Shown: positions 47,074 to 64,000 of the stretch, piece after piece | How the letters are laid out: every line of letters starts with the position of its first letter | Position numbering within the stretch: the first letter of the stretch is position 1 | From: Ricordea florida | Taxonomy: Eukaryota > Cnidaria > Anthozoa > Corallimorpharia > Ricordeidae | Direction: 5' to 3' | Assembly (NCBI GenBank): GCA_949710005.1 | Contig: OX453280.1 | Coordinates: forward strand, 12,760,605 to 12,824,604 | Length of the DNA stretch: 64,000 nt | Program-made: the position numbers and the translations under genes | Notes under the pieces: generated by a model | What the model was told of the DNA's origin: nothing | Databases searched by the model: none | The model's input: the letters and a program-made list of their open reading frames with translations, nothing else

Positions 47074-47579
47074 GTTTTAGTGTAAAGACGAGCCGTGAAT
47101 TGACGTACTGTTTGCTTGCTGACCATCCAACCTACCGAACTCATATTTACTCGGGCTTTCCGAAGGAAACGCCCGAGGTTTAAATTCGGCTTCGTTATTT
47201 TTTTTTTCCTTCAGTCACAAATCGCCGTAGAGCTCTTACGCATGAGCGCATGCGTAGAATTTGTATGGTGCGCATACAGTTACGAGCGAACCTTTTATCA
47301 TGAACCATGCTATGACTGCTTTATCAAATGGACTATCTATCGAAAATCATGCTATATCAAATCAGCTATCTCCTGTTAGCTTACGTAGAAATCGTCGCAT
47401 GGGTAAACGTGATCGAGAACCCAGCAGATTGCCAGTTCGAATTTTGAAGTGTCTGAGAAACAAAAGCAGAAAGCTGAAGGAGTTTGTCTTCAAACGTATC
47501 TGTGCGAGTTTACGGCTCTTTCTCGGTATATCAACAACTGAAATTTCGCAACCATTGAAAGCACTGAGATCTCTGTGGT

Positions 47580-48012
47580 TCTTGGTCCTTGGTCCTTTGG
47601 TCCTGGGACTCTGGGACTCTGGGACTCTGGGTCTCTGGGTCTCTGGGTCTCTGGGTTTCTGGGTCTCTGGGTTCCTGGGTTCCTGGGTCTCTGGGTCTCT
47701 GGGTTTCTGGGTTTCTGGGTTTCTGGGTTTCTGGGTTTCTGGGTTTCTGGGTCTCTTGGTCTCTGGGTCTCGGGGTTTCTGGGTTTCTGGGTCTCTGGGT
47801 TTCTGGGTTTCTGGGACTCTGGGACTCTGGGTCTCTGGGTCTCTTGGTCTCTGGGTCTCTGGGTCTCTGGGTCTCTGGGTCTCTGGGTCTCTGGGTCTCT
47901 GGGTTTCTGGGTCTCTGGGTCTCTGGGTCCCTGGGTCCCTGGGTCTCTGGGTCCCTGGGTCTCTGGGTCTCTGGGTCTCTGGGTTTCTGGGTCTTTGGGT
48001 CTCTGGGTTTCT
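47580..48012. repeat. 8-bp minisatellite, GGGTCTCT type, about 54 units
   Basis: Units GGGTCTCT, GGGTTTCT, GGGTTCCT, GGGACTCT and GGGTCCCT alternate. Because 8 x 3 = 24, several frames on both strands stay open across it. The long frames near 47261-48281 and 47362-48039 are therefore repeat artefacts, not genes. Confidence 0.9.
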
Positions 48013-48455
48013 GGTGCCATCGCCATTGTGGTCAACCAAACAATATCACCAAACTAACTGCACTATACCAATCAGCGCTTCATGGGAGTGTTGGGCTTTA
48101 TCATGGGGAGAGGCGTCAAAGCAGGAATATATTGAATTTCTTAAAACCCCGACGCACTTTAGCGCGCCAAGATCTCACGATCATTTCGGCCAAACTTCAT
48201 AAAAATCCGACAAGTCTACATATCCTATTTATTTATGTATTTTATGTTAAGAGAGGTTACTCGCGCCCAAAAAAATACTGAGTTTTTGGCCGAAAATTTT
48301 TACAAGTTTTGACACTTCATCGACGCTGGTGTGAATGCGGTCATGCTGCCAATCAGTGAAAAAATCCCGGTGCGCTGGTGAGACCTCGTGACGCCATAAA
48401 CCCATAACACTTGTTTATCGCCTTTCAGTTTTTCCTTTCAAGCTTTAAAATTGTG

Positions 48456-50683: not shown

Positions 50684-50970
50684 AGTAGGTATAAATACCC
50701 GATTCTGGCACAAAAATGAAAAATGTAAAATAAAAAATTAATTTTATTTTATCCCCAAGATTCTCGCACAAAGAAAATGGTGATTCATGCAAAGTTTCGG
50801 CCAAGCCCTTAAGTCAAGAGGGGCTGACGGGAGGTGTGAGCCGAGTAAGCGGAGGCGGGCACTGTCTTTGTGGCCGAGTCTCCGCAAAGTCAATGTAAAA
50901 TCGGGGGAGATTCTGGCCCCGAAATAAAAATAAATTATGGTTTAAAGAAATAGCATCGCACCACTAAATT
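50684..50970. other. Polinton left terminal region
   Basis: No gene. An AT-rich segment (50730-50760) is followed by a GC-rich patch at about 50818-50900. By analogy with other Polintons this should include the terminal inverted repeat, which needs the right end for proof. Confidence 0.5.
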
Positions 50971-50974
50971 AATT

Positions 50975-51445
50975 ATGGAACAAAAATTGCAAAAATTATA
51001 TTTGCCGCAATTGAAAAAAATTGCGGTGGGGTTAAAAATTAAAAGATTATATGGAATGAATAAAGCAGAATTGATTGAAGAGATAGGGAAATTTTCAGAA
51101 GAAGAGATTAATGAGAAAAAACAAAAAGTTATAATTAATAATAATTATGTTTGTGCCCATGGAATTTGTAAATATTTCTGCAAAGAATGTGGTGGGTCAC
51201 AAATATGTATTCACAATAAAAATAAGCATCAGTGTAAAGAATGCGCAGGGTCGCAAATATGTTCGCACATTAAATATAAGTATCAGTGTAAAGAATGCGG
51301 CGGGTCGCGGATATGTAAACATGGCAAACAAAAACAACAATGTAAAGAATGCGACGGATCACAAATATGCGAACATAATAAACAAAAGCATCATTGCAAA
51401 GAATGTTTAATATTACGTTATGAAGCCCGAATTTCAGCCAAATAA
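50975..51445 (+). CDS. SAP/Rho-N-like plus cysteine-repeat protein
   Basis: 156 residues. Residues about 5-45 (LQKLYLPQLKKIAVGLKIKR and following) look like a SAP/Rho-N helical nucleic-acid-binding module. Residues about 60-150 hold four to five repeats of about 20 residues, pattern CxxCxGSxIC-x-H-x5-6-C, each probably binding zinc. Similar His/Cys arrays occur in large DNA viruses and in algae. First gene inside the left end, same strand as the next gene, with GTTTAAAG about 33 bases before the ATG. DNA or RNA binding is inferred. Confidence 0.75.
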   Translation: MEQKLQKLYLPQLKKIAVGLKIKRLYGMNKAELIEEIGKFSEEEINEKKQKVIINNNYVCAHGICKYFCKECGGSQICIHNKNKHQCKECAGSQICSHIKYKYQCKECGGSRICKHGKQKQQCKECDGSQICEHNKQKHHCKECLILRYEARISAK

Positions 51446-51487
51446 AAATTATGATTTAAAAGGAAGAAAAAGAATTATCAATCAAAA

Positions 51488-52120
51488 ATGGAAGGTTTAT
51501 CAAGTCAAGAATATATTGAAAATGGAATTATTACTATTGTGTATTCTAATGAAAAAGAGCTGGAAATCAGCGATTTCATTGATTCAATGAACAAGGATTT
51601 GGTAAAAGTAATATCAAAAAATTATGGGTTTTTAGATAAAAATTGTAAGCCTGTTATTGAAATTATATATTCTGGAAAGAATGACGGTGAAATTTTCGAA
51701 TATTATTGCGGAGAAGATGATGAAATAGATTTTGATGAGGGTTTTGTATTACCTGTTGATGAAATTTCTGAGATATTAATGGAAAATGCGAATGAAATTT
51801 ATTATAATAATTATCAAAAACTAAAATATATTATGCGCGTTTATAATGATGTATATGATGACCAATATGAATATGTTGATGAAGAATCAGACGAAGAAGA
51901 TGAAGATTATTCAAATAACATGAATGATTTTATTATTAATTCAATTAAAATCACATTATACAAAGACGCGCATAAGGTATTACACAAAAAGAAATTTTTT
52001 AATGATTTGCATAATGATTTAATGGCCGCAGCATGGAACCCCTACAAAAGAAAAGTTTTGGATTGGTGCGTCGATCTTGAAGAGCTGGGGGGTTTGAAAA
52101 ATAGATGGGGAATAGATTAG
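51488..52120 (+). CDS. Acidic protein with C-terminal AWNP...WC motif
   Basis: 210 residues, strongly acidic, with an Asp/Glu run at about 136-150. The C-terminal part LMAAAWNPYKRKVLDWCVDL resembles a short motif (AWxPxR...W) I associate with uncharacterised proteins of large DNA viruses. Upstream ATTTAAAAGG and TATCAATC match the element's shared promoter pattern. It is followed by a hairpin at 52135-52166 shared with the convergent gene. Function unknown. Confidence 0.7.
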   Translation: MEGLSSQEYIENGIITIVYSNEKELEISDFIDSMNKDLVKVISKNYGFLDKNCKPVIEIIYSGKNDGEIFEYYCGEDDEIDFDEGFVLPVDEISEILMENANEIYYNNYQKLKYIMRVYNDVYDDQYEYVDEESDEEDEDYSNNMNDFIINSIKITLYKDAHKVLHKKKFFNDLHNDLMAAAWNPYKRKVLDWCVDLEELGGLKNRWGID

Positions 52121-52134
52121 TTTAAAAATAATTA

Positions 52135-52166
52135 TGTTATATAACCTAATTACTGGTTACATAACA
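52135..52166. terminator. Hairpin between convergent genes (copy 1)
   Basis: TGTTATATAACC and GGTTACATAACA form a 12-bp stem (one mismatch) with an 8-base loop. It lies 14 bases after one stop and 4 bases before the opposite gene's stop. Nearly the same hairpin is at 57797-57828 in the same position relative to genes. Probable two-way 3'-end signal. Confidence 0.65.
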
Positions 52167-52170
52167 AAAT

Positions 52171-52806
52171 TTATCTAAATCTTAAACTAAAAGTTATTGG
52201 CAATCCTCTTAAATCAAGTTTTTTCCAATCAGAGTCTAAGATAGTTAAATCAAAGTGGTTTATGAGGCTCTCATATTTTTGAATCGGAATTGCCGGATAA
52301 TCTTTTGAGGGTATGTTTGCAAGTAGGTTTGATGGCGCGAGTTTCACAAGTTTTCCATCTTTGGTGTTATTCATATATGATGACTTATTATCAACTAAAC
52401 TACACATAAGTCTCAACGGCCCCCTAGTCTGTATATTTATGGGGTATAATTTACCAGGATTTATAACTTCAGGTACCCCTAAAGCAAACGACAATCCTCT
52501 GGTAAGTTTAATTTTGAAGTTTTTATTGGAATAAAGATAGTCAACAGTGTCTGTCTCAATGATTGTTATTTTTTCCCTATCAGGATCATTAAGAAAGATC
52601 GAATGAATATCACGCAACGAATATGACCCAGGTTGTATTATTATTTTTGGGAGCTGATTATTGTCAGTTATTTTTTCTTGATCCTTGAAATTAATCAATC
52701 TTTTGGTTTGTATATTACAATCCAGGAGCTGTATCTCCCGAAGATTTTTCAGAGGAGGATCTAAATAAATTCTAGTTTCTGAATCACACATTGTAATACT
52801 GAACAT
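52171..52806 (-). CDS. Polinton structural protein candidate (minor capsid-like)
   Basis: 211 residues. The plan is an N-terminal beta-rich part (YLDPPLKNLREIQLLDCNIQ), a block PGSYSLRDIHSIF, a mid region with LRLMCSLVD and a C-terminus LDLRGLPITFSLRFR. This resembles a protein conserved among animal Polintons that I believe is a virion component, possibly the penton (minor capsid). That assignment rests on pattern memory, not on visible catalytic residues. A TCTAAAAAC motif lies about 30 bases upstream, between this gene and the divergent Rpb7-like gene. Confidence 0.65.
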   Translation of the reverse strand: MFSITMCDSETRIYLDPPLKNLREIQLLDCNIQTKRLINFKDQEKITDNNQLPKIIIQPGSYSLRDIHSIFLNDPDREKITIIETDTVDYLYSNKNFKIKLTRGLSFALGVPEVINPGKLYPINIQTRGPLRLMCSLVDNKSSYMNNTKDGKLVKLAPSNLLANIPSKDYPAIPIQKYESLINHFDLTILDSDWKKLDLRGLPITFSLRFR

Positions 52807-52844
52807 ATTTTTGATTAAATTATATTAGTTTTTAGATAAGGAAA

Positions 52845-53306
52845 ATGGAAACTAATATAATTAAAAGGCGAATATATCTTGAACCTAAATATCTAGATAA
52901 AAATATTATGAGCCATCTATTGAGAACAATTGAAAAGAAAATGATTGAGGAAATTGATAAAGAGTATGGTTATATTATTTCAGTAAATCAAATAGTAAAA
53001 ATTTTACATAATGAAAATACTACTTTTGTTTTAAAAATTGAGGTGAAAACATACAAACCAAAAATTAAGCAAAAAATTCATGGATTGGTATGTGGGATTT
53101 TTGAAGAAGGCATTTTTGTTAATGTTTTTGGGAAAGTGAAAATTTTAATTCCGCATATTTATATAAAAGATTATACTTTTGATGCTGTTTCTAATAAATA
53201 TGAAAATAATAATAACAGAATTGCAATGGGAGATAAAATTAAAGTGGAAATAAAAGCAGTTAGATTTGATGAAGGCGGGTTCAAATGTATTGGGTTTTTA
53301 GCTTAA
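52845..53306 (+). CDS. Rpb7-like RNA polymerase subunit
   Basis: 153 residues, close in size to the RPB7/RpoE1 family. The N-terminal tip-associated domain has YLEPKYLDKNIMSHLL and EYGYIISVNQI. FVLKIEVKTYKPKIKQKIHG is the typical join to the S1 (OB-fold) domain. The S1 part has VCGIFEEGIFVNVF, GDKIKVEIKAVRFDEGGFKC and IG. Cellular Rpb7 pairs with Rpb4 as the polymerase stalk; poxvirus-like and asfar-like viruses encode homologues. It starts 38 bases from the divergent structural gene. An RNA polymerase subunit is not part of the usual Polinton gene set. The frame is intact and AT-rich like its neighbours, so it belongs to the element. Confidence 0.8.
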   Translation: METNIIKRRIYLEPKYLDKNIMSHLLRTIEKKMIEEIDKEYGYIISVNQIVKILHNENTTFVLKIEVKTYKPKIKQKIHGLVCGIFEEGIFVNVFGKVKILIPHIYIKDYTFDAVSNKYENNNNRIAMGDKIKVEIKAVRFDEGGFKCIGFLA

Positions 53307-53311
53307 ATATT

Positions 53312-53350
53312 ATGTTTTGATTAATTTCGGATTTTTTGTAATCAAAACAT
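53312..53350. terminator. Hairpin between convergent genes (second type)
   Basis: ATGTTTTGATTA (53312-53323) and TAATCAAAACAT (53339-53350) are a perfect 12-bp stem with a 15-base loop. It starts 5 bases after the Rpb7-like stop and its right arm touches the stop of the opposite gene. The sequence is unlike the other two hairpins but its position is the same. Confidence 0.6.
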
Positions 53351-54933
53351 TAACGAAATAAAAACCAAGATAATAATCCCCCAGCAAATATTAAAACAAT
53401 AAGATTATTTTGATGAGAAGATTTTTCTAAATTACTAAATTCAACTATTTTGTCTGATTTATCGTCATTGCTTAATTTAGGATTGGTATTTAATAAAACC
53501 TTTGATGTTCCTAAACTATTAGGTATTCCAACATTTTTTGTTTCGGCATTTATTGAATTATTTACCCCAAATTTCATATCTTCTGTTGCTATTTTCAGAT
53601 TATTATTGTACCCAACCGTGCTCTCTGTATTTATAATCATATTACTTGGCATCAACCAAACTCCAGGAGCAACAGCCAAATCGAGTCGTAATTTAGTTTC
53701 CTGCACAGATTGTTGGTAATTTTGAACGGATTTAGAAATATCATTTACCTTAACAGAACTTTCAAATAAGGTTTTGAATTCATTTTGTGTTTCTATTGCT
53801 CCACCGCCGGCGCCAACAATAGAATTTCTGGTATTAACTTGAGCGCCCAATATGCAATAAACAAAAGCCTCAACTGATCTATTTATTCTCCCCAATCCCG
53901 CCTTTGTTAATCCGTATCCAGATTCTGGTATAAACCACGCATATTGAAAATCTATAAAATGATCATTTCGAAGCATAGATATTAAAGTACCTCCAAATTT
54001 TTTGCCGCCATAATCAGCAAATTTATTTATTTCGCTGGGCCAAATATTTACATCAGGATCATTAGGATGAATAATTCTTACGTTTTGATTTCCCCCTCCT
54101 ACTGCCTGTGAACTACCACCTCCAGGAGGGATGTATCCTTTTCCATAATCAATGAATACATCTCCTGCCCCATGGTTTGCGCCACCCCTGAATCTAAAAT
54201 CAGCTAAAGGTTTTCTCCATCCTTTAAAATCTTGATTATTGCTTAACCCAAATTCTGCGCACAATCTATTATAAACATTTTTGTTGTATGGATTATTTTT
54301 TGAAGAAAAAGTTTGTTCGCCGGGTAATGGTATATTTAATTCCTGTAATATTCTTCTTATTGTAAAATAAACGTGAAATACAAAAAAACTTCTAATCACT
54401 CTTGGGTAATTTAAAATTTCAATTAAACTAACACCGCAGCCAGATGTTGCGCACCAAACCGCCATGTTTAATTGTTGAGGCCAGTGATTAATATTTGGTT
54501 TACTCAACCAAGCTCTAGCTTCTTTGCCGCTAGTAAGACCCACAGTTTGATTTTTAAAAACATTTGTCATTGCCGCAGTGAAATGATCTTTTTCCGAAAC
54601 ATATATATCTAAATTAGTTAACATTTTTGTTACATCAGTAGCAAATTCATCGAATTTAACCCCAGGTATTGAATATGTTTTTTTCGTAAATGTTAAACTT
54701 TTTGGGAATGAACTTTTCTTGATTTTATTTTCTTTACCCAAATCTTTCCATAATAATGTTTTCAAATCATTAGAAAGATTTGCAGTCCAAGTTTCCCCTG
54801 AAGGATCATCGACGGACATAATTGTTGTTCCATTAACTTTCCATTTAATATATCCTCCAAATGAGTCATTCACAAAAGTAAATTTATTTAGGCCCGCGTT
54901 TGGGTAACGGTTTTTGAAATCATCCAATAACAT
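53350..54933 (-). CDS. Large Polinton protein with C-terminal membrane anchor
   Basis: 527 residues, the largest complete gene of the element here. It has a mostly polar N-terminal half, a Gly-rich segment (RFRGGANHGAGDVFIDYGKG and YIPPGGG) at about 245-275, a Gln/Asn-rich region, and a single C-terminal transmembrane stretch, NLIVLIFAGGLLSWFLFR. No enzymatic motif is seen. Size, anchor and place among the virion-type genes suggest a structural or membrane-associated virion protein. Upstream, TCTTAAAAGATCTAAAGATC matches the shared promoter pattern. Confidence 0.65.
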   Translation of the reverse strand: MLLDDFKNRYPNAGLNKFTFVNDSFGGYIKWKVNGTTIMSVDDPSGETWTANLSNDLKTLLWKDLGKENKIKKSSFPKSLTFTKKTYSIPGVKFDEFATDVTKMLTNLDIYVSEKDHFTAAMTNVFKNQTVGLTSGKEARAWLSKPNINHWPQQLNMAVWCATSGCGVSLIEILNYPRVIRSFFVFHVYFTIRRILQELNIPLPGEQTFSSKNNPYNKNVYNRLCAEFGLSNNQDFKGWRKPLADFRFRGGANHGAGDVFIDYGKGYIPPGGGSSQAVGGGNQNVRIIHPNDPDVNIWPSEINKFADYGGKKFGGTLISMLRNDHFIDFQYAWFIPESGYGLTKAGLGRINRSVEAFVYCILGAQVNTRNSIVGAGGGAIETQNEFKTLFESSVKVNDISKSVQNYQQSVQETKLRLDLAVAPGVWLMPSNMIINTESTVGYNNNLKIATEDMKFGVNNSINAETKNVGIPNSLGTSKVLLNTNPKLSNDDKSDKIVEFSNLEKSSHQNNLIVLIFAGGLLSWFLFR

Positions 54934-55029
54934 CTTATTCTTTGTGTTTCAAATAATGTGATCTTTAGATCTTTTAAGAATAAGATGTAAAACAATTGCA
55001 ACCAACTTCAGTTTTCTCATACACAAGTT

Positions 55030-55629
55030 TTAATGTCCTTTCCCTCCGGTAAGTTCTTTTAATAGATCTTCGCGAACTTTCTTCCTTATAATCGACATGT
55101 CGAAGTTTTTTTCTGTATCTCTCCGAAATTTTTGTCGAACTTCTAGTTTTAGTTTTTGGAACTTTTCCAACTCCGCCAAAATTATGGAAAATTCTTGGTC
55201 GGATATAACATTATCTTTCAGGGCTTTTGAAACTAAATCGCTAATGGTGTTTAATTTTGATTTTGCAATTGCAACGGTTTGTTCGTGTTTACTAACTTTA
55301 CCAGAAAGTCTTTTTGATGCATAACCGAATCCAATCGACAAACCGCCAAAAATCCCGCCGACAACACCTAAAGGCACACCGACAATAGTTCCAAAACCAG
55401 TAAGAGAAGTTCCGAGACCGCTTGCTGATAGAATAACTGAAATCAAACCACCAGAAATACTAATTTTTGCACATATTCCTCTCGCCCTATTATATTTTTT
55501 CCTTACTTCTTCGTAATGTTTGATTTCTTTCTCAAGATTTTGTAATACCTCGCTTGATTTTTGAAGTCTGAAATTAATAGGATCAGTATTATTGGGTAAT
55601 ACAGGGTAAATTTTATTGTAGTCATCCAT
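55030..55629 (-). CDS. Polinton membrane-active protein, Gly-rich hydrophobic core
   Basis: 199 residues. An N-terminal coiled-coil-like stretch leads to ICAKISISGGLISVILSASG and a following GVPLGVVGGIFGGLSIGFGY hydrophobic region (about 52-105). A second helical region has LISKAL-like and EFSIILAELEKFQKLKLEVR sequence. I recognise the pattern from cnidarian Polintons, where such proteins are thought to act on membranes. The start is supported by TTTAAAGATATCGCGGTGAT and AGTAAAATA just upstream. Confidence 0.65.
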   Translation of the reverse strand: MDDYNKIYPVLPNNTDPINFRLQKSSEVLQNLEKEIKHYEEVRKKYNRARGICAKISISGGLISVILSASGLGTSLTGFGTIVGVPLGVVGGIFGGLSIGFGYASKRLSGKVSKHEQTVAIAKSKLNTISDLVSKALKDNVISDQEFSIILAELEKFQKLKLEVRQKFRRDTEKNFDMSIIRKKVREDLLKELTGGKGH

Positions 55630-55667
55630 ATTGTATTTTACTGATCACCGCGATATCTTTAAATTTG

Positions 55668-56654
55668 TTACTTACTCTTCTTTTTTATACTTTCCACAAA
55701 ATATAGAACCACGGCCATTATCAATAACCAAGCATTCTTTCCTAAAAACCCAATAACTTCTCCCGCTGTTTTGAAAAGAAAGCTAACTATTGCACCAACC
55801 ATTCCGGGTAATATTTCACCTAATTTTTTGCCTAAAGTTTTTAATCCCTTTCCAACCCCCCTTCCCAAAGAAGATAAACCCTTTGAAAGATTAGAAATTA
55901 TAACCCCAATGACGGCACCTACCGCACTCATAACAGCAAAAACTGTAAAACCATACTTTTTGAATAAATACTTTAGCCGATCACGTAATGGCATATTTTT
56001 TAGTATTTCATCATTTTTTCTCTCAATATCAGCCATTTGATCTTCGTTTAATATTAACTGTTTTCTCGATAGTTCATCGTAAGTTTCAACCCTTTTAGCT
56101 AACCTATCTCGACTTTGTTCAATATTTTTCAAGCTAGCCAAATCTTTCTTACCCTTTTCATTCTCGGTTTTGATTTCTTTCAAATCATTAAGTAAAGTTT
56201 CTGCATATTGTTTTGCATCAACCTTCTGTCTAACTGCGGCTTCTAAATAACTATCTTTTTCAGCGATTGTGGTTTGATTTCGTTCAATCACACCCATCAA
56301 TTCTTTTTCAATTGAAACATATCGATCTATTTCGAATTGGCTTGTTTCCGCTACTGCTCTTAAACCATCTAATGCATTACGCAAATCCCTAATTTCTTCA
56401 TTTTTTTCATTTAATTGAGATAAAAGATCATCGCCAGCCTGAACAACTTCTCCTGATTTTTTACCCAGAGCATTCAATATGGTGGCAGGGAGTTTTTTAT
56501 TAATATCACCATTTTTATCGAATAAATCATGCCATACAGAATTTATTCTGGGGACTGAAACTATGATTTTACCCCACTCATCATATTTGTACAAAAATAT
56601 TTTAGTTTCAGCTTCTGGAAATTTATTTAAAATATCTCTCTGCACTTGTTTTTT
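55668..56654 (-). CDS. Coiled-coil and C-terminal membrane protein, no ATG start
   Basis: About 325 residues of open frame. Residues about 75-215 are a long coiled coil. The C-terminal 110 residues contain several hydrophobic/Gly segments (FTVFAVMSAVGAVIGVIISN; GEVIGFLGKNAWLLIMAVVL) typical of a membrane-inserting Polinton virion protein. There is no ATG at the start; the frame opens after a stop at 56655-56657, and the first possible starts are GTG codons. It overlaps the upstream acidic gene exactly at an A_AAA_AAC heptamer (56648-56654), so it is probably made by -1 frameshifting from that gene. Confidence 0.65.
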   Translation of the reverse strand, partial: KKQVQRDILNKFPEAETKIFLYKYDEWGKIIVSVPRINSVWHDLFDKNGDINKKLPATILNALGKKSGEVVQAGDDLLSQLNEKNEEIRDLRNALDGLRAVAETSQFEIDRYVSIEKELMGVIERNQTTIAEKDSYLEAAVRQKVDAKQYAETLLNDLKEIKTENEKGKKDLASLKNIEQSRDRLAKRVETYDELSRKQLILNEDQMADIERKNDEILKNMPLRDRLKYLFKKYGFTVFAVMSAVGAVIGVIISNLSKGLSSLGRGVGKGLKTLGKKLGEILPGMVGAIVSFLFKTAGEVIGFLGKNAWLLIMAVVLYFVESIKKKSK

Positions 56655-56881
56655 TTATTTTCCTTACCACGAATCTCTATTTCTTTGCTTGGTAATTGTG
56701 TTTTTGGTCTTGCCCCCTCATTCTCATAATTCCTTTCACCTCTGGTTGTGGATGTTACTCGAACAGGTATTTTTGATGGTTTTCTACCAAGTAGTTGACT
56801 ATCTTCATCATAATCATCAGGATCTTCTTCTTCCCCCAATCCAATGGGATCATCGTCCGGTACTTCTGGTAATGTTGCCAT
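56627..56881 (-). CDS. Short acidic N-terminal protein, upstream of frameshift
   Basis: From the ATG at 56881 (MATLPEVPDDDPIGLGEEED) about 84 residues run to the stop at 56627. An earlier in-frame ATG at 56896 exists. I prefer 56881 because TCTAAAGATTTCATACTGAT and GAGTAAAAA lie at the same distance as at other genes of the element. The C-terminal end overlaps the coiled-coil frame by the slippery run. It probably serves as the N-terminal domain of a larger frameshift product. Confidence 0.6.
   Translation of the reverse strand: MATLPEVPDDDPIGLGEEEDPDDYDEDSQLLGRKPSKIPVRVTSTTRGERNYENEGARPKTQLPSKEIEIRGKENKKNKCREIF
56648..56654 (-). promoter_or_regulatory. Candidate -1 ribosomal frameshift site A_AAA_AAC
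   Basis: On the minus strand the zero frame reads AAT AAA AAA AAC AAG. A slip of -1 on A_AAA_AAC moves ribosomes into the open frame of the 325-residue coiled-coil protein, which otherwise lacks a start codon. The heptamer is one of the strongest known eukaryotic slippery sites. A downstream pseudoknot was not established. Confidence 0.6.
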
Positions 56882-56962
56882 GATTTTTTTACTCATCAGT
56901 ATGAAATCTTTAGACGAAGAAAATGATTTAAAATAAAAAAAAAATAAAAGAAAAGAAATAAA

Positions 56963-57775
56963 ATGATGAACGAAAATACGCAATTAATAGATATTAATAA
57001 TTATAACCCCCAAAAAAGTATGATCTTTTCTAAACCATTTTTAGGCGAAGTTCCAGATAAAAAACCAAAGGTTGAATTTAGAAGAATAAAAATTTTTACA
57101 AAAAATGAAGATGGAACTGAAGGAGAACTAGTTATTCCAACCAGCCGGTTGTATTCATTTGGAGTTTCTGAAAGTTTTTCAACTTGTTCTTTTCCTTTGT
57201 GTTTATGGAGTGGAAATAAACCCACCGATGAAGAGGAAAAATGGATAGAAAAATTTAATGAAATAGTAGATTGCTGCATTGATCATATTTTAGAAAATAA
57301 AGAAGAAATTGATAGATTTGAGTTGAAAAGATCTGATCTTACTAAATCAAAGGGAGGTTTTAATCCTCTCTATTGGAAAATGGAAAAAATTGAGGATGGT
57401 AAAAACAAACCTTATATGCAAAGAGTTCCTGATAGAGGACCGACATTATATCCCAAATTAATTTCGTACAAAAAGGGAGAATTTCTTACAAAATTTTATG
57501 ATATTAGAAGTGAGGATTGTAATGGAACAATAAACCCCAAGGATTTAGTCAATAAAGGTTGCCACGCAGAGTGCTCAATCAAAATTGAATCAATATTTAT
57601 TGGCGCGCGTATTTCATTGCAAGTAAAACTTTATGATGCTCTTATTGAAACGAAAAAGGAAATTAAAAGATTAGCCCCTCGCAAAAAAAATAATCCAGAA
57701 GTAATTATTTCTGACGGCGAATCTGCTTCTTCCTATATTGGTTATGAAGATTCTGATGACGGGAGTCTCATGTAA
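56963..57775 (+). CDS. DUF2738-like protein of large DNA viruses
   Basis: 270 residues. After a short basic N-terminus come EGELVIPTSRLYSFGVSESF, FPLCLW, EKWIEKFNEIVDCCIDHILE, GGFNPLYWKME, PTLYPKLISYKKGEFLTKFY and a strong block CSIKIESIFIGARISLQVKL. This order of motifs matches the DUF2738 family found in nucleocytoplasmic large DNA viruses. Function there is not established; single-stranded DNA binding has been proposed. The C-terminus is acidic. The gene is divergent from the acidic frameshift gene and ends next to a hairpin at 57797-57828. Confidence 0.7.
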   Translation: MMNENTQLIDINNYNPQKSMIFSKPFLGEVPDKKPKVEFRRIKIFTKNEDGTEGELVIPTSRLYSFGVSESFSTCSFPLCLWSGNKPTDEEEKWIEKFNEIVDCCIDHILENKEEIDRFELKRSDLTKSKGGFNPLYWKMEKIEDGKNKPYMQRVPDRGPTLYPKLISYKKGEFLTKFYDIRSEDCNGTINPKDLVNKGCHAECSIKIESIFIGARISLQVKLYDALIETKKEIKRLAPRKKNNPEVIISDGESASSYIGYEDSDDGSLM

Positions 57776-57796
57776 ACCAAATAATAAATATACTTG

Positions 57797-57828
57797 TGTT
57801 ATATAACCCAATTACGGGTTACATAACA
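57797..57828. terminator. Hairpin between convergent genes (copy 2)
   Basis: TGTTATATAACCC and GGGTTACATAACA form a 13-bp stem (one mismatch) with a 6-base loop. It is almost the same as 52135-52166, and extra bases at the stem base are co-varied (ACC/GGT against CCC/GGG). It sits 21 bases after one stop and 9 bases before the other. Confidence 0.7.
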
Positions 57829-57837
57829 AAAAATAAT

Positions 57838-58236
57838 TTATAATATTTTACTGACTGCGTAACCTAAACCTAACATTCCAGCCGCGACATATGCCATTTC
57901 TCCTGTTTTTTGATCATCGCTTGGTTTGTAATAATCAGTGAATTTTGGTTCATTCATTTGAGCGTACAATTCAAAAGCCTGATTTGTAACCGAAATATTT
58001 TTTGTTGCTTGATATTTTTCATCTTTTCTTTTCATTTTCCAATCAAGCATTTCTTGTCTTTTTTCCTGATATTCTTCGTAATCTCTTTGGTATTTTTCCA
58101 TTGCTTTGTCGTGCCGTATTTTTTCTGTATCCACATTACGCCCCGATAAATATTTTGCAAGATAATTTCCGCCAGTAAATGCCGTTGCATTTAATACAGC
58201 ACCTCCAATCATCATTGCTATTGATACTAATGCCAT
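57838..58236 (-). CDS. Polinton small membrane/coiled protein
   Basis: 132 residues. The N-terminus has a hydrophobic stretch (MALVSIAMMIGGAVLNATAF), then a charged helix with RHDKAMEKYQRDYEEYQEKR. The C-terminus has another hydrophobic stretch (AYVAAGMLGLGYAVSKIL). The GGAxxNAxAFxGxN and RHDxAxEK pattern recurs in cnidarian Polintons. Its ATG overlaps the upstream stop (TAATG), which suggests coupled translation with the next entry. Confidence 0.65.
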   Translation of the reverse strand: MALVSIAMMIGGAVLNATAFTGGNYLAKYLSGRNVDTEKIRHDKAMEKYQRDYEEYQEKRQEMLDWKMKRKDEKYQATKNISVTNQAFELYAQMNEPKFTDYYKPSDDQKTGEMAYVAAGMLGLGYAVSKIL

Positions 58237-58454
58237 TATTTTGGTAAAATCTTTTGATCCTCTAAATATGTTTTAAGATACATGCTTCCGGATAATACAG
58301 CTACCCACTTTGCATAATTTGTAATGCTTGAAGATGGGTCACTCAAAAATGATTCTTTCATCATCTTTTTAGCTACATACCCAACCCCAGCTCCCAATCC
58401 AATAAGTACGGCTGAATCAGTTACAGTTTTCACAAGTTTGTTTTCAGTTGACAT
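58236..58454 (-). CDS. Small membrane protein of the Polinton
   Basis: 72 residues with two hydrophobic segments (VLIGLGAGVGYVA and WVAVLSGSMYLKTYL) and the end KILPK. Upstream TTTAAAAGTTTCTCAATGAT and ACAGTAAAAAAT fit the shared promoter pattern. Stop and next start overlap. Probably a virion or assembly membrane protein. Confidence 0.65.
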   Translation of the reverse strand: MSTENKLVKTVTDSAVLIGLGAGVGYVAKKMMKESFLSDPSSSITNYAKWVAVLSGSMYLKTYLEDQKILPK

Positions 58455-58499
58455 AATTTTTTACTGTATCATTGAGAAACTTTTAAATGACTTTTGAGA

Positions 58500-58916
58500 T
58501 TATTCCATTCCTAAAGATTTTGGAGTTAAATGAAATGGAATTTTTGAGGGTTGTGGTAATTGGGGAACTTGTGATAAATCAGCTATCCTATTAGAATATT
58601 CAACCCTAGCTTTTTCCTTATATCTCATAAAAAGATCAAATGCTGTAAACCCTAATCCAATAACAGATAAAACAGTAGTAAAAGATAACTCCGGCAACCA
58701 TGATTTGACTTCGCGAGGAGGCTTTTCTTGATTATACTCTATTTCTGTATTTTCCCGTTTCATTTCCCTAGCTAATGCTTCTTTTGCTTTTTTATTATAT
58801 TCGGCTAATTTCTTGCCAGCTGCAACTTTTTTTGGATCTTTTTCCTTTTTTCCTGTAGTTTTTTCCTCTTCTTTTGGAGGATCTCTTGTAATTTGCTCAA
58901 CAAATTCTTCAGACAT
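58500..58916 (-). CDS. Lys/Glu-rich protein with one membrane segment
   Basis: 138 residues. A highly charged N-terminal half (KDPKKVAAGKKLAEYNKKAK) is followed by WLPELSFTTVLSVIGLGFTA, which is a likely transmembrane segment, and a Pro-rich tail. The KDPxxVAAGKKLAxxNKxAKE pattern recurs in cnidarian Polintons. TTTAAAGGCTTATTAGCGAT is about 30 bases upstream. Confidence 0.65.
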   Translation of the reverse strand: MSEEFVEQITRDPPKEEEKTTGKKEKDPKKVAAGKKLAEYNKKAKEALAREMKRENTEIEYNQEKPPREVKSWLPELSFTTVLSVIGLGFTAFDLFMRYKEKARVEYSNRIADLSQVPQLPQPSKIPFHLTPKSLGME

Positions 58917-58951
58917 TATTTTAATATCGCTAATAAGCCTTTAAATCATGC

Positions 58952-59476
58952 TTAGTAAACAGTATCAACACCTTCAGTAGATTGCTTAGTATTCTGGTCA
59001 GTTGTGCTGCCATTAACTGGTTCTTGTTGATTTTTGTTGAATTTGATGTGTTTTGCTACTTGAAATATACCGCTAGCAAGTGCTGCCAGTCTTCCTGATT
59101 TCAATGCTAAGAACCCAACAATGTTTGATAGTTCTCGATTAACCAAATCATCATTCTTCAGATCATTGCAAAGAGATTCTATATCATCAACCGGAACTAA
59201 ATAAGAAATAATTTTGGAAACTAATTGAAGGGATGAATCTACTAACCCACCATTAATTTTCTTACCCATTACCGATTGATAACGATTAAAATATTTTTCT
59301 ACATCTTTTTCTGATAGTCTCTTTATATCACCCAGACTCATATCAACCCCCATATATTCCTTTGTTGTCCCAAGCACTGCTAGAATCGCAAGAGATTCTT
59401 GTTTAATTTCAAGATCCTCATTTTTTCCCGACGGTTGGTCTGCCTCTTCTTCAATATATTCTTCAATATTAGACAT
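58952..59476 (-). CDS. Polinton conserved helical protein
   Basis: About 174 residues from MSNIEEYIEEEADQ. It contains LSEKDVEKYFNRYQSVMGKK, GLVDSSLQLVSKI, DDIESLCNDLKNDDLVNREL and a hydrophobic stretch VGFLALKSGRLAALASGIFQ. The family recurs in Polintons; role unknown, possibly virion. I choose the start at 59476 over one 12 codons upstream because TTTAGAGATACC lies about 30 bases before it and because it then begins 5 bases after the ATPase stop. Confidence 0.65.
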   Translation of the reverse strand: MSNIEEYIEEEADQPSGKNEDLEIKQESLAILAVLGTTKEYMGVDMSLGDIKRLSEKDVEKYFNRYQSVMGKKINGGLVDSSLQLVSKIISYLVPVDDIESLCNDLKNDDLVNRELSNIVGFLALKSGRLAALASGIFQVAKHIKFNKNQQEPVNGSTTDQNTKQSTEGVDTVY

Positions 59477-59481
59477 CTTTG

Positions 59482-60108
59482 TTAAATCACTTCTGGTATC
59501 TCTAAATAGCAATTAAATGGATATCGCAAAGATAAACATAACCTAGAATATTTTTCAGTTTTCAGTAAATGCACAAACTTTTTGCCCAATTCGTAATCCA
59601 AATCACCTCCATAATCTTCGAAAAACATTTTCATACCTTTCTGCGAAGGATTATGGAAAGTAACAACGCAGGCCACATTTTCCCTGAATGGTTTTGCTAT
59701 TGAAGTTAATTGCTGGGTTAGAACCCAAACTGATAATCCGTGATGCCTTCCGGAAAATGCTAAATCTATGAACTTATTCGATCGTTTCTTCAGATCAGTG
59801 GATACGGCGCAATCATCTAAAATTATTAAAGTATTTGTTCCGGAGAATAAAGTTTGGCAATCAGTTAGTAACTCATTAATCTCCTCAACGTTACTTGCAT
59901 CTGGAGATAATACATAGAAATGTTTATCCTTATTAGCAAAATTATGATAAGTTTTATTCTTAGAATAGGTCGGACAAATTAACACAATATATTCAAAAAC
60001 TTTCCGGAATGGCCCTCGGAGCTGTTCAATTAAGTACTTTGTTTTCCCGCAATTTGTGGGTCCTGTTATAATACAATGGAATGGTATTTTATCTCGTAAA
60101 TCTTCCAT
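59482..60108 (-). CDS. Genome packaging ATPase (A32/FtsK-HerA family)
   Basis: 208 residues. Walker A is ITGPTNCGKTK (about 14-24) and Walker B is LIILDDC (about 93-99). WVLTQQL (about 128-134) fits the sensor motif, and the arginine of SGRHHG lies just before it. The ATPase pumps DNA into capsids in poxvirus-like viruses, virophages and Polintons. It is in the same direction as the capsid gene, which starts 35 bases upstream of its leader. Confidence 0.85.
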   Translation of the reverse strand: MEDLRDKIPFHCIITGPTNCGKTKYLIEQLRGPFRKVFEYIVLICPTYSKNKTYHNFANKDKHFYVLSPDASNVEEINELLTDCQTLFSGTNTLIILDDCAVSTDLKKRSNKFIDLAFSGRHHGLSVWVLTQQLTSIAKPFRENVACVVTFHNPSQKGMKMFFEDYGGDLDYELGKKFVHLLKTEKYSRLCLSLRYPFNCYLEIPEVI

Positions 60109-60142
60109 GATTTTTGTATCATAACATTATGTTTTTAGACGG

Positions 60143-61384
60143 TCAGTACTTAATTGATCTCAAACTTGAATTCATAATCTCCAGCATTGCATCAGCTACG
60201 ACAAACATATGACAAGTTATTGTTCCGGATCCGCTTTGTTTCCTTTTAATTTCTATTTTTACACCATCATGCGTATTATTTAGAGCTAATCCTCCGCCAT
60301 GAATATTATTATCTGGATGAGTTCTAGTATCAACCCAAAGAGCAAACTTATCCGCGTAAAATTCTTTTTCTTTCAAAGAAATTTGTTCCCCCGTTGGCCG
60401 GAAGCGTTTTTTCACGGATTCCCAAAAATCAGACGGAATCATTCCCCTAGAGTATATTCTATTTGGCACTCCATCAACATCAATTTCAACGGAAGATATA
60501 CCAGGATTATAAAAATTTTCAGAATCCCTTGCTCCTGCAGCTTGAGGCAACAAAAACAAAAACAAAATTCCTGTCATTGATCTTCTCGGCAAATTAATAT
60601 GCTGATTAATAACGCCATCACCGCCAACGGAAAATGTAAAAGTTTTGTGTAAGGTAATATTTTCATAAAAGAATCCTTTGCCAACTTGATAAGCTGCTTG
60701 AGCCTCGCGGGCCAAGTATTCGCTTGAAATGGAAGAATATTCTAACTCTAAGTTTTTGATTGAATATGATGGTGCTTTAGTTGTATCAGAATAAATAAGA
60801 ATATTATTAATTGGGGCAAGTGTAATCTCAAATATTAGATGATTTTCCAACGCTTTCGGATAAAAAACACCGTGATCGTTTAAAATAGGGTGATTTATTG
60901 GTATTCTATACTTTGAACCGTGAACTTTAGCTAGAGCAATTTCTTTTACATCTATTCCAGTTTTTGCATCTCCAGATTTTGTTCTATGTCTTCTAATATC
61001 TATAGAAGAAATACCTTGTTTTAATTTATCTTCGCGCTCTTCTTCGGTTAAGAATAAATCATGATACGTTTGAAATAAATCATATCTTTGAGTATCTTGC
61101 AATGTTTCTCCACCAAAAAGAACTTTTAGTCTGGTTACAAGATTACGACCCAGATTATTCACAACCGTATTATTCGCATGCCCCTCAACATCTAAGTCAA
61201 ATAGAAGAGAAACGCTTCCAGGTACAATTACCAAATTCTCGGCGAGTTTTGGAATATTTATATATAATGTTTCTCCCGGGCTGGCTGAGGATGGATTTAG
61301 AGTAATTCTATTCAGGGTTGATTCCGCCTTCAAACCAAATGGTTCCTTTGGAATTCTGTTTGGATTAATTTTTTCAGACGTCAT
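60143..61384 (-). CDS. Major capsid protein (double jelly-roll)
   Basis: 413 residues. The first jelly-roll has ETLYINIPKLAENLVIVPGS and LVTRLKVLFGGETLQDTQRY. The second has FFYENITLHKTFTFSVGG and SMTGILFLFL. HMFVVADAMLEI is near the C-terminus. These are landmarks of the Polinton/F54H12.2-type capsid, homologous to virophage and adenovirus-like capsids. It is full length, with no stops. Upstream are TTTAAAGGCTAACC and TATCTTATAA. Confidence 0.85.
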   Translation of the reverse strand: MTSEKINPNRIPKEPFGLKAESTLNRITLNPSSASPGETLYINIPKLAENLVIVPGSVSLLFDLDVEGHANNTVVNNLGRNLVTRLKVLFGGETLQDTQRYDLFQTYHDLFLTEEEREDKLKQGISSIDIRRHRTKSGDAKTGIDVKEIALAKVHGSKYRIPINHPILNDHGVFYPKALENHLIFEITLAPINNILIYSDTTKAPSYSIKNLELEYSSISSEYLAREAQAAYQVGKGFFYENITLHKTFTFSVGGDGVINQHINLPRRSMTGILFLFLLPQAAGARDSENFYNPGISSVEIDVDGVPNRIYSRGMIPSDFWESVKKRFRPTGEQISLKEKEFYADKFALWVDTRTHPDNNIHGGGLALNNTHDGVKIEIKRKQSGSGTITCHMFVVADAMLEIMNSSLRSIKY

Positions 61385-61413
61385 TGTAATTTATAAGATA
61401 CTTTGGTTAGCCT

Positions 61414-61605
61414 TTAAATCGGTGTTGTCCTATTTTCTAACTCACCAATATGTTTTAATAAACATTCCCTCGCCTCGGGAATTAAAATTAAAATATTAAA
61501 AATTTCATCCCCATCTTCCATAAATAGAATTTTTTTCCTAATAATTTTTTTCATGAGATTAATTTGGTTTTCGCTAAATTTTATTTTTTCTTCCTCAGCT
61601 ACCAT
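61414..61605 (-). CDS. Small Polinton protein, unknown
   Basis: 63 residues, helical and charged, starting MVAEEEKIKFSENQ. It has its own TTTAAAAATAAACAATTATC and TTATAAATT upstream, shared in spacing with the capsid gene, which supports that it is a real gene. It lies divergent from the integrase gene 31 bases away. Confidence 0.55.
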   Translation of the reverse strand: MVAEEEKIKFSENQINLMKKIIRKKILFMEDGDEIFNILILIPEARECLLKHIGELENRTTPI

Positions 61606-61636
61606 TTTAATTTATAAGATAATTGTTTATTTTTAA

Positions 61637-62614
61637 ATGATGTCAAAAATATATTATTCAGCCGAAGGGTATTGGAAAGGATATGCCGCGATTCCTAAAT
61701 TAGCTGAGAAGGCTAGAGTAAGTGAAAATGAGGCAAAACAATGGTTGCAGAAACAGGCAATATGGCAAATCTATCTACCTACCCCAAAATATATTCCTAG
61801 ACCGCACTGGACTTTAGATAAACCCAATCAGATTCACCAAGCGGATTTATTATTTTTACCGCACGATAGAGTTGGAAGAAAAACATATAAATATGCGTTA
61901 GTTGTGGTTGATATCGCCTCGAGATATAAAGATGCTGTGCCATTAACCTCAAAAGAAAGTCGAGAGATATCAGAAGCTTTTACAAAAATATATTCTAGAA
62001 GATTGAAATACCCAAAAACATTAATGGTTGATCCTGGGAAAGAATTTATGGGAGAAGTTAGTAAACTCATGAATTACCATAATGTGAGGATACAAAGAAG
62101 TGAAGCTGGTAATCATAGAGCTCAAGCATTTGTGGAAAATGCGAACAGAATATTAGGAGAAAGATTATTTAGCCATCAATATGCGCAGGAAATGATCAGT
62201 GATGATCGATCAAGAGTATGGGTGAAAAGATTACCAGCCATTCTAAAAACTTTGAATAATACGAAAAAGAGAATAACCGGTAAAGAGCCCGATGAGGCTA
62301 TAAAACTGAAAGAGGTTGATATTGAAACCAAAAGATATCATCGCGTTGTGGGACCTGATGAGGTTAGATTACCGCCGGGCGTTAAAGTTAGATATTTATT
62401 ATCCCCGGGCGAACTTGAGGGCGGCGAAAAAAGACGCGCTACTGATCCTATTTGGAGTATCAAAGTTTATGATATTGCGCGTAGCGTCGTTTCGCCTAAT
62501 CAACCTGTTTTATATTATTTATTGGATGGGCCGAGGCGGGGGTTTGTAAGGGAAGAACTTCAAGTTATACCTTATGATACTAAGTTGCCGCCAGATTCTG
62601 TTTTGCAACGATAA
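61637..62614 (+). CDS. Polinton integrase (retroviral rve family)
   Basis: 325 residues. An N-terminal helical part (residues about 15-45) precedes the RNase H-fold core. The catalytic triad is D in QIHQADLLFLP, D in TLMVDPGKEF and E in AQAFVENANR, all in place. A C-terminal SH3-like part has DPIWSIKVYDI and VLYYLLDG. No chromodomain is seen. Two ATGs are in tandem at the start. It integrates the element with 6-bp target duplications in characterised Polintons. Its 3' end overlaps the polymerase gene by 43 bases, in opposite orientation. Confidence 0.85.
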   Translation: MMSKIYYSAEGYWKGYAAIPKLAEKARVSENEAKQWLQKQAIWQIYLPTPKYIPRPHWTLDKPNQIHQADLLFLPHDRVGRKTYKYALVVVDIASRYKDAVPLTSKESREISEAFTKIYSRRLKYPKTLMVDPGKEFMGEVSKLMNYHNVRIQRSEAGNHRAQAFVENANRILGERLFSHQYAQEMISDDRSRVWVKRLPAILKTLNNTKKRITGKEPDEAIKLKEVDIETKRYHRVVGPDEVRLPPGVKVRYLLSPGELEGGEKRRATDPIWSIKVYDIARSVVSPNQPVLYYLLDGPRRGFVREELQVIPYDTKLPPDSVLQR

Positions 62615-64000
62615 TGCCCATAGGAAAAAGTATTTATTCCATCCTCGCAAATTATTCTCTTATCATCGTCATATGATAGCGCGACTTTATTAATAGTTTC
62701 AGTATAAACATCATGCAAACGACTTCTAAATACATTCATCTTTCTCATTTGCCGTTGTTTATTGAAAAGACAATTTTTATAATCATCAAAGCTTATTGTC
62801 TTTTTTAATACTGGCGTTTTTACCCCTTTGCCCTTTTTTATCTCGCCGCCTTCATCCAACCTGTATGAGTAAAGCTTGGCTCTTAGACCGACAAATTCTG
62901 ATATTTGTTTTCCGCCCGCCTCATCTTTGAACATGTTGATTACTTTTTTGTTTTTATCGGTCTTAATACCAGATCGATGGTTTGCGGGGAAATTAGAAGT
63001 GTCAAACCTTTCCTTCACATCTGCGGCAATGTCCTGGTAGAAATCTTCCGTTTCTATCAAATATGCAAGACTATCCGTATCTGTAAAAAGCAATTTAGAC
63101 TTTTCCCCATACTTTGGTTTGATATAATTATAATGAAAGTCGAACATTATTGTTTTGCTTAAATCCAGAATGCACATACCCAAGTAAACGGGTTTATTGA
63201 ATACTAACTTTGTTTTCTTCATATGAATGGCCACAAGATTTTCACAAAAGATAGTACGATGCTGATAATTAGGTTTTGTTATTAATTTTTTCGCGTCTTT
63301 TTGATTTGTTACTAATTTAATGTCAACCCTTTTTCTGATGTTTTCCATTGTTTTACCAAACACAGAATTGTTCATTAACTTGAAAAAATCTTTCTCAAAA
63401 TCGTTATTTCCTTTAGCTCTGAGGTCAGTATTCAATTTAATGTAAGGTTTTAACCATTCTGACTCTTCGAATGTGATCCCCCGATGGATTTTTGTAACTT
63501 TCATTCCCAAGGATTGGTAAAGTTTTAGTGTTTCGCGATGGACAACATACTTTTCCTTATTGTTTAGATTTGGGATTAATTTCTCCACTTTATTAACTAC
63601 AAGCCTCTCCGGGGCTAGTGGATAATCATTGTGCAAATCATGAAGGTGGGCTGGGTATTCTAAATCAACCTCTAGTATGCATGGGGTATTTTCCCAATTT
63701 TCGAATTCCTGATCTTTCATCCATCTAAATCCGTGGGTGGGTAAAGGCCTACTCATTCCACCGCCATACAAATTATTTGCGTCTAGATATTGAATGAAAA
63801 TTTTGGGCAGATTAGGATCATATTCTCTCATGTATGAGTTATTTGCTTTCCCATATCTGGTAGATATCATAGAGACGCCGCCTCGGATGCCTTTCTCAAT
63901 CATAAGCAGCATATCAGCATCGGTTAGTAGCTCCAAATTCACTTTTGTGTACTTTAATGCGGCATCCCAAGCTAGCCCCGGCGCCGTATAATAGTGGGCG
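62572..64000 (-). CDS. Protein-primed DNA polymerase B, C-terminal part
   Basis: The frame is open from the window edge (HYYTAPGLAWDAALKYTKVN at the edge) to the stop at 62572, about 475 residues. Motif A is YLDANNLYGGGMSRPLP, motif B is FKLMNNSVFGKTMENIRKR and motif C is LLFTDTDSLAYLI, with both catalytic Asp residues. It is the palm and thumb of the Polinton replicase. The exonuclease domain lies beyond 64000. No break is seen. Confidence 0.85.
   Translation of the reverse strand, partial: AHYYTAPGLAWDAALKYTKVNLELLTDADMLLMIEKGIRGGVSMISTRYGKANNSYMREYDPNLPKIFIQYLDANNLYGGGMSRPLPTHGFRWMKDQEFENWENTPCILEVDLEYPAHLHDLHNDYPLAPERLVVNKVEKLIPNLNNKEKYVVHRETLKLYQSLGMKVTKIHRGITFEESEWLKPYIKLNTDLRAKGNNDFEKDFFKLMNNSVFGKTMENIRKRVDIKLVTNQKDAKKLITKPNYQHRTIFCENLVAIHMKKTKLVFNKPVYLGMCILDLSKTIMFDFHYNYIKPKYGEKSKLLFTDTDSLAYLIETEDFYQDIAADVKERFDTSNFPANHRSGIKTDKNKKVINMFKDEAGGKQISEFVGLRAKLYSYRLDEGGEIKKGKGVKTPVLKKTISFDDYKNCLFNKQRQMRKMNVFRSRLHDVYTETINKVALSYDDDKRIICEDGINTFSYGHYRCKTESGGNLVS

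What the first reader, a model, noticed from the sequence alone, without database searches (positions are those of the whole stretch)
52845..53306. Rpb7-like RNA polymerase subunit gene inside a Polinton
The 153-residue protein has both the N-terminal tip-associated domain and the S1 domain of Rpb7. Known Polinton gene sets (capsid, ATPase, protease, integrase, PolB) do not include RNA polymerase subunits. Large DNA viruses such as asfarvirus and mimivirus relatives do. A lone stalk subunit might recruit the host polymerase to the element or, via the S1 fold, bind its transcripts. With the DUF2738-like gene next door, this suggests gene flow between Polintons and large DNA viruses.
Basis: partly seen in the sequence, partly recalled or inferred. 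Interest (0 to 1): 0.85.

Follow-up and report, generated by a model that had tools for sequence, protein, structure and literature searches.

The report
Polymerase stalk-like gene in animal Polintons
A virus-like element that has multiplied in an animal's genome carries its own much-altered version of one part of the cell's RNA-making machine, and selection has kept that gene working in many copies of the element, which suggests it helps the element get its genes read.

Summary

The host genome (unnamed animal, 538 Mb) holds at least 184 such sites. At 48 distinct sites read, g527 lies beside the gene in 48 and g211 in 47; 47 of 48 are full length; median pairwise dN/dS is 0.34. The host's own RPB7 is a separate multi-exon gene, about 90% identical to human and 22% to the element's protein, so recent host capture is excluded.

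Some sister elements lack it: in 4 of 4 read, g527 and g211 are directly adjacent. The gene appears to have entered antisense at g211's promoter, whose inverted repeat survives beside it.

Best explanation: a selected accessory gene acting on a polymerase (confidence 0.5). Transfer from large DNA viruses is untested. My searches of the held library found no report of Rpb7 in a Polinton.

The parts
52845..53306 (+). Rpb7-like gene, 153 aa: SHS2 tip domain (about 1-70) and S1/OB domain (about 71-153)
   Evidence: 48 distinct genome sites
53310..53352 (.). 13-bp-stem inverted repeat between Rpb7 and g527: by comparison with empty sites the former g211 promoter; its TCTAAA core has decayed in this copy
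   Evidence: both arm cores present at 46 of 48 sites and TCTAAA at 26 of 48
52807..52844 (.). 38-bp region between the divergent starts of g211 and Rpb7, presumed to hold both promoters
   Evidence: TCTAAA in the g211 direction at 46 of 47 sites
52171..52806 (-). g211, conserved 211-aa protein with no Pfam match; neighbour of the insert
53350..54933 (-). g527, conserved 527-aa protein with no Pfam match above cut-off; neighbour of the insert
50975..51445 (+). Rho_N domain plus Cys-rich repeats, 156 aa
   Evidence: PF07498 E 6.5e-6; 54-nt spacing
51488..52120 (+). g210, acidic, variable protein, no family
56963..57775 (+). DUF2738 protein
   Evidence: PF10927 E 5.7e-55
59482..60108 (-). A32-type packaging ATPase
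   Evidence: PF04665 E 3.7e-12
60143..61384 (-). major capsid protein, double-jelly-roll class by fold
   Evidence: PF16903 E 5e-4, under cut-off; fold
61637..62614 (+). retroviral-type (rve) integrase
   Evidence: PF00665 E 1.3e-9
62572..63912 (-). part of a PolB-like DNA polymerase, running off the window; motifs read by eye, no Pfam match

Best explanation
The gene is a strongly diverged Rpb7 homologue carried as an accessory gene by part of a very abundant Polinton-type family in an animal genome. SHOWN: the two-domain Rpb7 fold (by prediction); the fixed place between g527 and g211; purifying selection; a separate cellular RPB7 gene in the host; sister elements with an empty site. INFERRED: it was gained by insertion at g211's promoter and is swapped between elements by recombination. 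INFERRED MECHANISM: the protein docks by its tip domain on a DNA-directed RNA polymerase core, most likely host Pol II. There it replaces or competes with the cellular Rpb4/7 stalk. Its S1 domain binds the nascent element transcript and so favours elongation, 3'-end formation or later handling of element mRNAs.
Against: A deletion removes most of the loop IQPGRG that host, human and (as IQPGQG) fly Rpb7 have: 57 of 57 own-genome copies aligned are gapped there. From memory, that loop belongs to the tip that contacts the core, so docking may be altered or lost. No Rpb4 partner was found among the ORFs scanned. There are no interaction or expression data. Elements persist without the gene: 76 of 101 close capsid genes have no listed Rpb7 within 12 kb (the Rpb7 lists were capped, so some may be missed) and 4 of 4 read lack it. 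One of 48 sites is truncated (L036).
Confidence: 0.5

Rival explanations
1. It acts away from the polymerase: a free S1/OB RNA-binding protein, using only the RNA-binding half (mRNA stability, translation, or virion RNA/DNA binding), or a decoy that titrates host Rpb4 and damps host transcription.
For: Tip loop deleted. The S1 half alone matches Pfam above cut-off and RNase R S1 domains. The cellular Rpb4/7 pair has been given cytoplasmic mRNA roles (abstract of PMC4207488 in the listing). One copy joins the tip domain of one lineage to the S1 domain of another.
Against: The N-terminal half is conserved at least as well as S1 (mean major-residue frequency 0.82 against 0.79) and holds the most invariant block.
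Confidence: 0.27
2. It serves a helper: the element is virophage-like, is transcribed by the polymerase of a co-infecting large DNA virus, and supplies a stalk subunit for it.
For: Rpb7 homologues occur in irido-, mimi-, pox- and asfarviruses. A shared TYTAAA-type motif lies 29-36 bp before the ATG of 10 of 14 genes tested; mavirus-type virophages share a TCTA motif with their giant virus (passages of PMC8547959). Palindromes lie at the three convergent junctions that have an intergenic gap.
Against: No helper virus is known here. TTTAAA/TCTAAA is also a plausible TATA-like box for host Pol II. The motif was chosen after looking, and the antisense strand of the same regions also scores 10 of 14, since TTTAAA is its own complement. 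The number of hairpins in the element (7) is within the range of ten controls (1-7).
Confidence: 0.1
3. A host RPB7 copy was picked up recently and is decaying or neutral cargo.
For: Elements without it exist, and 76 of 101 close capsid genes have none listed nearby.
Against: Host RPB7 is about 90% identical to human and about 22% to the element's protein; cellular and element proteins separate with 100/100 support. dN/dS is about 0.3 and 47 of 48 sites are full length.
Confidence: 0.03
4. On origin, a separate question from present role (so its odds do not add to those above): the gene came from a large DNA virus rather than directly from a cellular donor.
For: Great divergence from cellular Rpb7. 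Rpb7-like proteins of iridovirus relatives in the structure list are of similar size, 141-170 aa. Three database proteins of unknown source (P0009-P0011) lie outside the own-genome group and keep a cellular-length loop.
Against: No viral Rpb7 sequence could be compared by tree; structure does not rank viral above cellular homologues.
Confidence: 0.4

Closest known systems
Eukaryotic Pol II subunit Rpb7 (and archaeal Rpo7/RpoE1)
   Different: About 21-25% identity to cellular Rpb7; tip loop largely deleted; 153 residues against 171-172 in mammals; intronless; encoded by a mobile element, with no Rpb4 or other subunit among the ORFs scanned
Rpb7 homologues of large DNA viruses (iridovirus 250L type, mimivirus Rpb7, ASFV D339L, poxvirus Rpo18)
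   Same: Viral Rpb7 fold; ASFV and vaccinia also lack an Rpb4 (table in PMC10881513); size close to the iridovirus-type proteins
   Different: ASFV and vaccinia carry further polymerase subunits; here Rpb7 is alone among the ORFs scanned, in an element of Polinton type
Polinton/Maverick and adintovirus elements
   Same: rve integrase, A32-type ATPase, capsid protein of double-jelly-roll class, PolB-like gene
   Different: Carries Rpb7 and DUF2738; term searches of the main text of two surveys found neither word (PMC11071308; PMC10120064)
Mavirus-type virophages (EMALEs, PMC8547959, passages and abstract)
   Same: Many integrated copies in a host genome; a motif shared by gene starts
   Different: Here the host is an animal and no helper virus is known; the motif is TYTAAA, not shown to be the TCTA promoter

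Membership tests
Rpb7 (RNA polymerase stalk subunit) | N-terminal SHS2 tip domain | tested here: met
   Pfam PF03876 22.9 bits, just under the 24.8 cut-off for P0001, E <= 0.01 in 9 of 11 members; fold match over residues 1-153
Rpb7 (RNA polymerase stalk subunit) | C-terminal S1/OB domain | tested here: met
   PF00575 above cut-off; 11 of 11 members
Rpb7 (RNA polymerase stalk subunit) | Best full-length relatives are Rpb7 rather than other S1 proteins | tested here: met
Rpb7 (RNA polymerase stalk subunit) | Tip loop as in cellular Rpb7 | tested here: not met
   gapped in 57 of 57 own-genome copies aligned (six residues fewer than host); hence called Rpb7-like, a homologue, and not filed as the Pol II subunit
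Rpb7 (RNA polymerase stalk subunit) | Assembles with Rpb4 and a polymerase core | not testable with these tools
   needs biochemistry
Polinton/Maverick | Retroviral-type integrase | tested here: met
   PF00665 E 1.3e-9, above cut-off
Polinton/Maverick | Double-jelly-roll capsid protein | tested here: met
Polinton/Maverick | A32-type packaging ATPase | tested here: met
   PF04665 E 3.7e-12
Polinton/Maverick | Protein-primed DNA polymerase B | tested here: inconclusive
   frame 62572-63999 (-) shows B-family-like motifs read by eye (recalled motifs), but no Pfam match; it runs off the window
Polinton/Maverick | Terminal inverted repeats and 6-bp target duplication | not tested
   the right end lies outside the window and was not fetched
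Polinton/Maverick | Adenoviral-type maturation protease | tested here: inconclusive
   no Pfam match among the ORFs scanned; the right end was not seen
NCLDV-type viral RNA polymerase | Several polymerase subunits in one genome | tested here: inconclusive
   no other polymerase family among the ORFs scanned; the right end was not seen, and genome searches for Rpb4 and Rpb6 did not complete (and later repeats)
Virophage | Depends on a giant-virus helper | not testable with these tools
   needs co-infection data

The most novel reading that the evidence does not exclude
An animal Polinton reprograms its host's RNA polymerase II by swapping one subunit: its own Rpb7 replaces the cellular stalk and makes a polymerase that favours the element's promoters or its hairpin-ended transcripts. 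The gene is traded between elements as an exchangeable cassette.
Probability: 0.22. Interest if true: 0.92.

Novelty: new variant of a known kind. Interest (0 to 1): 0.72.

Why it matters
Small integrating DNA viruses of animals are, to my knowledge, thought to rely on host transcription. A lone, selected polymerase stalk subunit in such an element would be a new way to take over or tune a eukaryotic polymerase. It also offers a natural experiment: elements whose capsid proteins are 97-99% identical to this one, with and without a listed Rpb7, lie in the same genome. That makes the effect on expression, spread and copy number directly measurable, and it bears on whether Polintons and large DNA viruses trade transcription genes.

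Tried and rejected
Viral origin by tree: three viral-contig scans with queries of this family (P0001, P0007, A5) and one with an alignment of the more distant P0009-P0011 found nothing; scans with the capsid and DUF2738 proteins also failed, as did a scan of prokaryote genomes. So no viral Rpb7 sequence was available and the origin stays open.

Contig-length fingerprinting: I compared contig lengths of the 10 Rpb7 hits with those of the 120 capsid hits listed of 667. No equal lengths, so this gave nothing. The genome search settled the question.

Hairpins as terminators: first read as giant-virus-like transcript ends. Their number in the element is within the range of controls. Comparison with empty sites showed that the one beside Rpb7 is the former g211 promoter flanked by an inverted repeat. 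An end-forming role remains possible because the arms outlast the TCTAAA core (46 of 48 against 26 of 48).

Double counting, corrected: the 50 loci hold two sites twice (L012 = L048, L015 = L032). One search recounts on 48 distinct sites, and those are the numbers given here; no conclusion changed. The trees still hold both duplicates; the tree does not.

Gain against loss: trees of g527 and g211 need 2 and 3 changes of the with/without label. With only four empty elements, and with recombination, they do not decide.

Host capture rejected. Capsid model: low confidence, used only for fold class. No conclusion is drawn from absent fold matches.

Not achieved: genome searches for Rpb4 (PF03874), Rpb6 (PF01192) and a mitochondrial marker (PF00115) did not complete.

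Full report

COPIES IN THE GENOME. The window lies in an unnamed 538-Mb assembly. P0001 gave 150 scored matches of 213 candidates; 148 of 150 have no internal stop. The capsid query had 6176 first-look candidates, of which 101 were scored; how many of the rest are real is not known, but the Polinton load is clearly large. Of those 101 capsid genes, 25 have a listed Rpb7 within 12 kb; all 25 lie on the opposite strand, 6.5-8.1 kb apart by their low ends; 0.8 would be expected by chance. The other 76 have none listed.

SYNTENY AND SELECTION. I read 50 loci: 8, 6 and 36 (every fourth of the ranked list). Two sites were fetched twice, so 48 are distinct. g527 flanks Rpb7 at 48 of 48 and g211 at 47 of 48; all 48 start with ATG and 47 are full length (38 of 153, 8 of 155 and 1 of 150 residues); L036 stops at 92 (first counts). 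Nei-Gojobori dN/dS among the 47, over the 992 of 1081 pairs with dS 0.1-1.0, has median 0.340, quartiles 0.288-0.390, maximum 0.63; 23 disjoint pairs give 0.292. Pairs share ancestry, copies recombine, and neutral time after integration raises the ratio, so selection in the active lineage is, if anything, stronger. PKYLDKNI (14-21) is in 45 of 45 distinct proteins; the tip half is as conserved as the S1 half (0.82 against 0.79). Two of the more distant copies vary one residue of it (L066, L068).

NOT THE HOST'S GENE. Host RPB7 is a multi-exon gene on C13, about 90% identical to human in the joined exons and about 22% to the element's protein; cellular and element proteins part with 100/100 support. 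The host protein keeps the loop IQPGRG; 57 of 57 own-genome element copies aligned are gapped there, while P0009-P0011 are not. Database proteins P0002 and P0003 nest among own copies (with L037, 94/84; with L052, 100/100), so these lineages also occur in other sequence records, whose source, perhaps the same species, is not named.

EMPTY SITES AND INSERTION. Four close elements without a listed Rpb7 were read (L054-L057), the first four of the 77 without one. In 4 of 4, g527 runs directly into g211 and no Rpb7 is found. In three of them the intergenic DNA is an inverted repeat, TGTTTTGATTA and TAATCAAAACA, around TCTAAAGATG, just before g211's ATG; the fourth (L057) lacks the first arm and has TTTAAAGATG. 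In occupied elements that repeat stands between g527 and the 3' end of Rpb7, often with TCTAAA intact, and g211 has another promoter beside Rpb7's start. AATCAAAA stands on the g527 side at 47 of 47 sites and a like word before g211 at 46 of 47. The simplest reading is one insertion of Rpb7, antisense, at g211's promoter, with a short duplication. Both arm cores persist at 46 of 48 sites while TCTAAA persists at 26, so the repeat may have a use apart from the old promoter, perhaps as an end signal for the two convergent genes. Trees of g527 and g211 do not decide between gain and repeated loss.

RECOMBINATION. Divergence of neighbouring genes from the window's copy is loosely coupled: g211 and g527 rho -0.09, Rpb7 and g527 0.24, Rpb7 and g211 0.47; at 19 of 47 sites Rpb7 and g211 differ by 15 points or more. 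One Rpb7 joins a tip domain 94% like L071 to an S1 domain 95% like L066 (L068); four further sites, not read, share its score. The elements seem to exchange segments, even inside this gene.

EXPRESSION SIGNALS. A TYTAAA word lies within 60 bp upstream of 10 of 14 genes, at -29 to -36 in each of the ten; the PolB and 209-aa frames, whose starts are uncertain, were left out of the 16 listed. Shuffles average 3.3 genes and none of 2000 reaches 10. Cautions: the word was chosen after looking, one element was tested, and the antisense strand of the same regions scores 10 of 14 too, because TTTAAA is its own complement. Rpb7 itself lacks the word. It could be a TATA-like box for host TBP or a virus-type promoter.

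MECHANISM. The protein most likely still meets a polymerase: the segment aligned with cellular PRYFGPNL is its most constrained part, and both domains are kept under selection. The stalk contacts nascent RNA through the OB fold and couples transcription to mRNA processing (passages of PMC10881513); Rpb6 helps to hold Rpb4/7 on Pol II (passage of PMC13257274). The shortened loop argues for altered docking: weaker, reversible, or towards another polymerase. A free RNA-binding role stays open.

LITERATURE. Polinton with Rpb7 gave one paper, by its title on a Drosophila gene, not read. For two of RPB7, Nucleocytoviricota and Polinton, none of the 20 listed of 54 holds the word Rpb7. Among the 10 listed of 115 holding two of adintovirus, virophage, Maverick, Rpb7 and two synonyms, the only one with Rpb7 concerns Mimiviridae (passages). 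Term searches of the main text of PMC11071308, PMC10120064 and PMC11071296 found no Rpb7. The library lacks most subscription journals, so absence from print is not shown.

Noticed in passing
50900-62600, upstream of 10 of 14 genes tested: Shared TYTAAA-type motif 29-36 bp before the start codon, a likely promoter of the element
   Followed up: partly
52135-52166 and 57797-57828: Two 32-bp palindromes of nearly the same sequence at convergent gene junctions; an arm of this type was found at the first place in 34 of 49 loci, two sites counted twice
   Followed up: partly
55668-56297 and 56627-56896 (-): Two frames that look like one gene split near 56.6 kb beside a run of T; described only
   Followed up: no
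L068 (C2:15738594) and four sites with the same score: Rpb7 that looks chimaeric: tip domain of one lineage, S1 domain of another; only L068 was read
   Followed up: partly
whole genome G000: 6176 first-look candidates for the capsid gene, 101 scored: a large Polinton load in one animal genome
   Followed up: no
50975-51445: Rho_N domain followed by tandem 18-residue Cys/His repeats, found again beside most fetched copies
   Followed up: no
51488-52120: g210 is the most variable of the five neighbours compared, from 90% identity to undetected; perhaps a host-interaction gene
   Followed up: no
47515-48100: Minisatellite with an 8-nt step, open in both directions as repetitive ORFs
   Followed up: no
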